From NCBI RefSeq assembly GCF_032884065.1, contig NC_088873.1:5366959-5430958 (forward strand): a stretch of 64,000 bases of DNA, written 5' to 3'. Shown one piece after another: positions 10,755 through 11,090 of the stretch. Position 1 is the first letter of the stretch; every line of letters starts with the position of its first letter. The stretch is from Artemia franciscana. Its lineage: Eukaryota > Arthropoda > Branchiopoda > Anostraca > Artemiidae. The notes beneath the pieces were generated by a model. The model saw only the letters and a list, made by a program, of their open reading frames with translations, was not told the origin of the DNA and searched no databases. The position numbers were made by a program, and so were the translations under genes.

Positions 10755-10952
10755 TTATCTACGTAAAACTTGCGAACATACAACACTCTTCGCTGTCCCA
10801 TTGTCTGTACATATAAATAGATTCCCAGGTTTACCGACTCTTGAACTTGCAACATATAATTGTCCATGGGAAAAACAATCCGTATTCAGATCTATACCTC
10901 ATTATTCTAATGATTGCCCTTGAGCTTTGTTGATGGTGATTGCTAATCGAAC
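10755..10952 (-). pseudogene. Helitron Rep-helicase C terminus (broken)
   Basis: The - strand frame from 10952 reads '[16 protein letters not shown]', two stops, then '[19 protein letters not shown]', '[18 protein letters not shown]' and '[10 protein letters not shown]' with its stop at 10755. This is the late-motif block of the Pif1-like helicase of Helitrons ('TINKxQGQ' and 'GQLYVAxSRVG'). A minisatellite joins it in frame on its 5' side. The element lies in the last Raf intron, antisense to Raf. Confidence 0.85.
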
Positions 10953-11090
10953 ATTCCCTGTGTCTTCATCGTCATTTATATATTCCCCCTGTGCCCCCCG
11001 GCGTCCCCGCTGTAGTTGTATCCCTGTGTCCCAGTCGTCATTTATATTCCCGGTGTCCCGGTCGTTATTTGTGTCCCGGTGTCCCTTCTT
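10953..11090 (-). repeat. Helitron-associated GC-rich minisatellite
   Basis: Units built from 'gtcccggtcgtcatttatat' with 'tccctgtgtcccggt' variants. In helicase orientation a 27-nt unit translates as DDRDTGNIN and runs in frame into the helicase motif at 10952. The same units occur at 11517-11680, 19360-19450 and 63550-63740. Confidence 0.75.

What the first reader, a model, noticed from the sequence alone, without database searches (positions are those of the whole stretch)
10755..11090. Minisatellite fused in frame to a Helitron helicase motif
In helicase orientation the minisatellite reads as repeated DDRDTGNIN (27 nt, a multiple of three) and flows into [16 protein letters not shown]. 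The minisatellite is found with Helitron pieces at three loci (10953-11680, 19360-19450, 63550-63740). Inferred: a coding minisatellite arose inside the helicase gene and spread with the element, or it replaced the helicase interior in a non-autonomous lineage.
Basis: partly seen in the sequence, partly recalled or inferred. Interest (0 to 1): 0.75.

Follow-up and report, generated by a model that had tools for sequence, protein, structure and literature searches.

The report
Brine-shrimp Helitrons with internal minisatellite
The repeat is a non-coding filler inside shortened, very numerous copies of a Helitron jumping gene in what appears to be the brine shrimp genome, and the full-length copies that were examined do not carry it inside their protein gene.

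Summary
The genome matches the female Artemia franciscana assembly. The exact 34-nt repeat occurs 37,748 times (reversed control 0); its exact fusion to the helicase end occurs 5,851 times.

The arrays belong to Helitrons. Of 66 array clusters on 5 Mb of contig C1, 36 have an exact Helitron 3' end (hairpin, CTAG) within 1 kb downstream on the same strand, 1 on the opposite strand; random positions give 0.55%. One window copy (19149-19906, minus) is a complete 758-bp element with the array between an N-terminal gene piece and the last 16 helicase codons.

The array is not coding. Units fall in two or three reading phases in 73 of 77 arrays; 29 of 30 fetched helicase pieces hold a stop. Three full-length ORFs (1571-1688 aa) lack the unit, as do, in frame, 17 readable helicase sites from 20 sampled copies.

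Best reading: internally deleted, non-autonomous Helitrons in which a non-coding minisatellite takes the place of most of the gene; a new family of a known kind (compare oyster Cg_HINE).

The parts
10761..10955 (-). C-terminal 65 codons of Helitron helicase, two in-frame stops after SLE, no FA before ITINK
   Evidence: relation to Helraiser by sister copy L022
10956..11085 (-). minisatellite array next to the helicase (18/27-nt units plus a degenerate G-rich part)
11090..11300 (-). (AAAAACT)n tract, a recurrent module of these elements
11302..11382 (-). tRNA-like sequence (RF00005, 35.8 bits), perhaps a SINE head carried in the element
11383..11445 (-). N-terminal-like Helitron piece (MTEEPTMASPEEAAQ)
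   Evidence: by eye; approximate ends
11515..11660 (-). second minisatellite array of locus 1, units in other reading phases
19149..19906 (-). complete 758-bp non-autonomous Helitron (TC...CTAG, A before and T after)
19884..19906 (-). 5' terminus TCTATATATATAAAAATAAGTTG
   Evidence: exact
19457..19635 (-). N-terminal ORF piece MAEETAEEAAQRGNAKRIAAKRESNKRKRAEESQEQR..., approximate ends
19359..19456 (-). minisatellite array at the deletion junction
19306..19358 (-). last helicase codons [16 protein letters not shown], approximate ends
19274..19303 (-). (TA)n
19149..19175 (-). 3' hairpin end and CTAG
   Evidence: 3 differences from the reference end
63456..63478 (+). 5' terminus of the third copy, next to a (TA)n
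   Evidence: exact
63552..63655 (+). minisatellite array of the third copy
63656..63691 (+). helicase fragment [11 protein letters not shown] inside the array
63688..63745 (+). array continues after the helicase fragment
63751..63974 (+). (AAAAACT)n tract

Best explanation
The feature is part of a large family of non-autonomous, internally deleted Helitrons, most likely of Artemia franciscana. Complete copies keep the 5' TC end, often a scrap of the N-terminal gene or a tRNA/(AAAAACT)n module, the last 16-65 helicase codons, usually a (TA)n, and the 3' hairpin with CTAG. A compound non-coding minisatellite (spacings mostly 8, 18 and 27 nt) sits where roughly 4.5-4.8 kb of the Rep/helicase gene is missing (my estimate). 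Inferred: full-length Helitrons of the same genome, with nearly the same ends, supply Rep/helicase in trans, and rolling-circle copying spreads the array as passenger DNA. Inferred: the array grew from filler DNA related to the element's own 3' untranslated region and varies in length by slippage and recombination. In-frame runs into TINKAQG are short and incidental.
For: Shown: 37,748 exact 34-mers, 5,851 exact fusions and 19,436 exact 3' ends in the genome, reversed controls 0. Of 66 array clusters, 36 have an exact 3' end within 1 kb downstream on the same strand, 1 on the opposite strand, 5 upstream; random positions 0.55%. Twelve of 12 loci picked by the unit alone (7 neighbourhoods) carry Helitron parts by loose matching. 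One complete element in the window; others by features include L007, L009, L010, L021 and L030. Full-length partners with ORFs of 1571-1688 aa share the 3' hairpin-CTAG end (3 of 3, up to 3 mismatches) and the 5' terminus (2 of 3, exact in L062 and L064; none found upstream of L063's ORF), and lack the unit in the ORF. Not coding: 73 of 77 arrays use two or three reading phases; 29 of 30 fetched helicase pieces hold a stop and their majority sequence reads SLE**G; 13 non-autonomous copies not picked by protein match show no excess of third-position change (26/46/41 substitutions at codon positions 1/2/3) and 6 of them have indels. In 4 of 5 arrays tested the best match to the full element is a 26-nt stretch of its 3' UTR (39.2-43.7 bits; best of 60 shuffles each 24.7-29.2).
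Against: The array next to the helicase in the window is locally in frame, open for 66 codons. Of the 150 best-scored copies, 30 (my count of the list) have no stop within the 65 codons, with open frames up to 226 aa. Of 241 spacings, 126 are multiples of 3. In one search, 30 of 66 clusters lack an exact 3' end within 1 kb and only 8 of 66 have the exact fusion within 1 kb downstream (5 upstream); whether the rest are diverged or truncated was not checked. Movement in trans is not shown. The direction of the 3'UTR-array relation is unknown, since the full element's 3' UTR itself carries extra helicase-tail copies (by eye). The fifth array tested for origin (L010) matched best to a helicase scrap lying within it (35.6 bits, best shuffle 32.8). 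Each full-length ORF holds one weak 10-nt likeness to the unit (ATCGGGACAA at 1408, 2 mismatches).
Confidence: 0.88

Rival explanations
1. A coding minisatellite arose inside the helicase gene of an autonomous Helitron and lengthens a real protein.
For: Unit length 27 nt; local open frame of 66 codons into [13 protein letters not shown] in the window; 30 of 150 scored copies have no stop in the helicase piece.
Against: 0 of 3 full-length ORFs and 0 of 17 readable helicase sites (20 sampled) have the unit in frame; none in the longest ORFs of 30 Rep loci, which hardly reach this end; two or three phases in 73 of 77 arrays; 29 of 30 fetched pieces hold a stop.
Confidence: 0.03
2. An independent dispersed minisatellite that Helitrons merely happened to insert beside or capture several times.
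For: The array is flanked by several different modules on each side; 30 of 66 clusters have no exact 3' end within 1 kb.
Against: Fixed orientation relative to the 3' end (36 versus 1 of 66) and the same exact fusion 5,851 times; 12 of 12 unit-picked loci hold Helitron parts.
Confidence: 0.05
3. The arrays act as recombination or template-switch hubs that assemble chimeric Helitrons, so their presence helps diversify and spread the family.
For: Around 77 arrays the nearest left neighbours include (AAAAACT)n, 5' subterminal, N-term and helicase tail; the right neighbour is NVRL in 57 and (AAAAACT)n, tail, N-term or others in the rest; duplicated helicase pieces with array between them.
Against: Nested insertion and ordinary ectopic recombination give similar mosaics; the loci were not a random sample; no rate was tested.
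Confidence: 0.3

Closest known systems
Cg_HINE elements of the Pacific oyster (non-autonomous Helentrons with satellite-like central repeats; PMC7492417, outline, abstract and passages seen)
   Same: Short tandem-repeat arrays as the central part of non-autonomous rolling-circle elements, mosaics of flank and array modules, spread over the genome.
   Different: Those are Helentrons whose authors could not relate them to the autonomous elements they found; here the ends are of the canonical Helitron kind (TC...CTAG, A|T), a helicase 3' coding piece is kept, and likely full-length partners with nearly the same ends are in the same genome.
DINE-1 / HINE elements of flies and a mite (PMC4067079, passages seen)
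   Same: Non-autonomous rolling-circle elements, some with central or tandem repeats or microsatellites, with a 3' palindrome.
   Different: They have subterminal inverted repeats, prefer T-rich sites and belong to Helentrons; the passages I saw report no helicase piece joined to the array.
Helraiser (bat Helitron, host recalled; PDB 7lcc by sequence search only)
   Same: Helicase sequence FAMTINKSQGQ...FAHGQLYVAFSRV aligns with the fragment.
   Different: No tandem repeat appears in the aligned stretch; it is a full Rep/helicase protein (1496 residues, entry named K1068Q), not a deletion derivative.

Membership tests
Canonical Helitron (non-autonomous) | 5' TC end | tested here: met
   TCTATATATATAAAAATAAG at window 19906 (minus) and 63456 (plus), L062:254, L064:539, L030, L012
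Canonical Helitron (non-autonomous) | 3' hairpin followed by CTRR | tested here: met
   GGGTGGCGCGAAGCGCCACCCCAACAGCTAGT, 19,436 exact copies; window 19149-19175 with 3 differences; one fetched copy, L020, ends CTTG
Canonical Helitron (non-autonomous) | Insertion between A and T without target duplication | tested here: met
   Window copy has A before and T after; L030 likewise by eye; only these two checked at both ends, and no empty sites compared
Canonical Helitron (non-autonomous) | Related full-length copy with Rep (PF14214) and Pif1-like helicase in the genome | tested here: met
   150 of 150 scored places over the family cut-off, best E 1.2e-57; ORFs of L062-L064 end in the same helicase sequence
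Canonical Helitron (non-autonomous) | Mobilisation in trans by that copy | not testable with these tools
   needs an experiment
Helentron / HINE | T-rich target site | tested here: inconclusive
   Two copies checked, both with A before and T after
Helentron / HINE | Subterminal inverted repeats | not tested
   no search made
Helentron / HINE | Central tandem repeats in a non-autonomous element | tested here: met
Coding minisatellite of a helicase gene | Unit in frame in intact ORFs | tested here: not met
   3 full-length ORFs and 17 readable helicase sites

The most novel reading that the evidence does not exclude
The minisatellite is not just passenger DNA: arrays shared by thousands of Helitrons serve as template-switch or recombination hubs during rolling-circle copying, so that new chimeric Helitrons (5' modules, SINE-like pieces, helicase tails) are built by swapping at the array.
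Probability: 0.25. Interest if true: 0.55.

Novelty: new member of a known kind. Interest (0 to 1): 0.33.

Why it matters
Helitrons are reported to make up 8.81% of this genome (PMC11492255, passages). The case shows one system in which full-length Helitrons with long open frames, their deletion derivatives and a minisatellite carried at the deletion site can be compared in thousands of copies. That makes the origin and growth of transposon-borne satellites, and module swapping in Helitrons, directly countable.

Tried and rejected
Rejected: origin of the unit from the helicase 3' coding end. An early likeness seen by eye was not borne out: the best match of 4 of 5 arrays to the full element is the 3' UTR stretch, and the fifth matched best to the NVRL helicase scrap lying inside that array.

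Rejected: selection on the helicase tail of the short copies. Copies picked by protein match showed fewer first- than third-position changes (19/43/52), but they were picked for protein likeness; 13 copies not so picked gave 26/46/41. That set left out 5 copies with TTTGCA in the first 30 bases and pieces under 150 nt; some cut copies may be misfiled.

Led nowhere: the exact 34-mer is absent from viral contigs; one distant viral contig (42% identity) was fetched (L031), not used and left out; ARAGORN found no tRNA gene in the window although Rfam matched one; Pfam matched the fragment only below its cut-offs. A first pattern guess with AAAGCACARGG gave 0 hits. Two planned counts, of the intact helicase sequence and of a unit-helicase fusion that still has FA, did not complete by the busy machine.

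Paper searches. None of the listings showed a paper on this Artemia minisatellite; that covers only the open-access library, those terms and the rows listed.

Full report
Where it lies. The window is G000:C11:5366959-5430958 of a 1.2705-Gb genome in 6,468 contigs. Two contig lengths listed (C2) and (C17), equal the longest scaffold and the N50 that PMC11492255 gives for the female Artemia franciscana assembly (passages seen). The scaffold number there (6,486) and total size (1,270,721,445) differ slightly, and here C1 (71,465,782) is longer than the 'longest' scaffold. I take the host as A. franciscana.

Minus strand 10761-10955 is the last 65 codons of a Helitron helicase with two stops after SLE; upstream is an 18/27-nt array. 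Helraiser is the best match of a sister copy among solved structures. All three array loci exist.

Genome copies of the helicase piece. The peptide had 84,262 first-look candidates, of which 150 were scored, at 85-100% identity; by my count of the list 30 of the 150 have no stop inside, with open frames up to 226 aa. Of 30 fetched loci, 29 hold a stop (L022 none) and 29 have at least 3 unit-like anchors in the 600 nt upstream (L011 has 1). The fragment lacks the FA that full-length copies have before ITINK.

Are units tied to Helitrons? The exact 34-mer occurs 18,963 + 18,785 times, the exact fusion 2,978 + 2,873, the exact 3' end 9,569 + 9,867; reversed controls are 0 for each. From the 100 unit places listed for C1 (66 clusters), 36 have the exact 3' end within 1 kb downstream on the same strand, 1 on the opposite strand, 5 upstream; random positions give 0.55%. 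The exact fusion lies within 1 kb downstream of 8 and upstream of 5 clusters. The 30 clusters without an exact 3' end were not examined. All 12 loci picked by the unit alone (7 neighbourhoods in the first 0.34 Mb of C1) carry Helitron parts by loose matching. Among loci not picked for the unit, plus the window, 8 of 11 arrays had parts within 700 bp and the 3 others lie near a locus edge; the same test rang at 43 of 300 random positions in those Helitron-rich loci and 8 of 250 window tiles.

A whole element. 19906 down to 19149 is 758 bp: exact 5' terminus, N-terminal gene piece, about 100 bp of array, [16 protein letters not shown], (TA)n, hairpin, CTAG, with A before and T after. The third locus starts with the exact 5' terminus next to a (TA)n. 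Locus 1 showed neither end, and a 2.6-kb stretch containing it has a 97.8%-identical copy about 100 kb away on the same contig (L002).

Full-length elements. PF14214 gave 7,436 first-look candidates; all 150 scored places pass the cut-off. L062-L064 hold ORFs of 1663, 1688 and 1571 aa ending ...[78 protein letters not shown]. They have no unit in the ORF (30-nt unit, up to 9 mismatches), apart from one weak 10-nt likeness each, and one unit-like stretch in the 3' UTR. L062 and L064 have the 5' terminus; none was found upstream of the ORF in L063. Of 20 further places, hand-picked from the 150 and sampled at the helicase, 16 read [10 protein letters not shown], followed by AFAITINK in 14, AFVITINK in 1 and, with IRL then VFATTINK, 1; 1 (L094) is broken by a (TA)n with an inverted array beyond it; 3 show no helicase there. 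One of the 16 (L081) lies on the strand opposite to the sampled Rep copy and looks like a deletion derivative without an array. None of 30 Rep loci has a unit within its longest ORF, though these loci hardly reach the helicase end; L040, L044 and L057 have arrays outside it.

Coding or not. Of 241 anchor spacings, 169 are 8, 18 or 27, and 126 are multiples of 3. Of 77 distinct arrays, 46 use three phases, 27 two and 4 one (not a random sample, L031 left out, only exact duplicates removed). The open stretch upstream of NVRL is 9-100 codons. Substitutions in 13 non-autonomous copies not picked by protein match show no coding pattern. So the array is very unlikely to be a protein repeat.

Origin and mechanism. 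Arrays share 26 nt with the full element's 3' UTR well above shuffles in 4 of 5 tests; which gave rise to which is open. Array neighbours vary: (AAAAACT)n, 5' subterminal, N-term or helicase tail on the left; NVRL in 57 of 77, (AAAAACT)n, tail and others on the right. Elements sit beside each other in (TA)n: in L064 a short copy runs up to the 5' end of a long one, and in L063 a 5' end follows the 3' hairpin (by eye). I infer that nested insertion at (TA)n plus copying errors built the mosaics, and that the long copies drive the short ones in trans. Filler in deletion-type transposons is known in kind (maize Ds-like elements with filler DNA, PMC3260210, passages); that comparison is mine.

Known kind. 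Non-autonomous rolling-circle elements with central tandem repeats are published for oyster (PMC7492417) and for flies and a mite (PMC4067079). This family differs in canonical Helitron ends, a kept helicase tail and identifiable full-length partners. I file it as a new member of a known kind.

Check against calls. On re-reading I corrected the copy L012 (it has the 5' end but no 3' end), the breakdown of the 16 helicase sites, and the Helentron membership rows, and added counts that go against my reading (30 of 150 without stops, 8 of 66 fusions, 126 of 241 spacings, the controls).

Noticed in passing
L062:594-1329 (similar repeats in L063 and L064): The full-length Helitron ORF has a real coding minisatellite at its N-terminus: a 69-bp unit (23 aa), 10.7 copies in L062. 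Several listed open frames differ by 23 aa (1548, 1571, 1594 and 1640, 1663).
   Followed up: partly
window 11302-11382 (-): tRNA-like sequence followed by (AAAAACT)n, like a SINE, inside the Helitron mosaic; a loose 20-nt match to it recurs in 9 of the 30 loci L001-L030.
   Followed up: partly
L062:5505-5924: The 3' UTR of the full-length element carries two extra copies of the helicase tail and an inner 5'-end-like sequence, as if 3' ends had been added in turn (by eye).
   Followed up: no
L013 upstream of position 1500 (helicase orientation): Two helicase pieces meet head to head at NVRL, forming a palindromic junction (by eye).
   Followed up: no
window 47516-48092: A tandem repeat of 85 bp, 6.8 copies, 98% matches, with no evident likeness to the Helitron repeat.
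   Followed up: no
window 56470-59598 (-): Long open frame of 1042 aa that looks like a non-LTR retrotransposon with endonuclease and reverse transcriptase (recalled resemblance).
   Followed up: no
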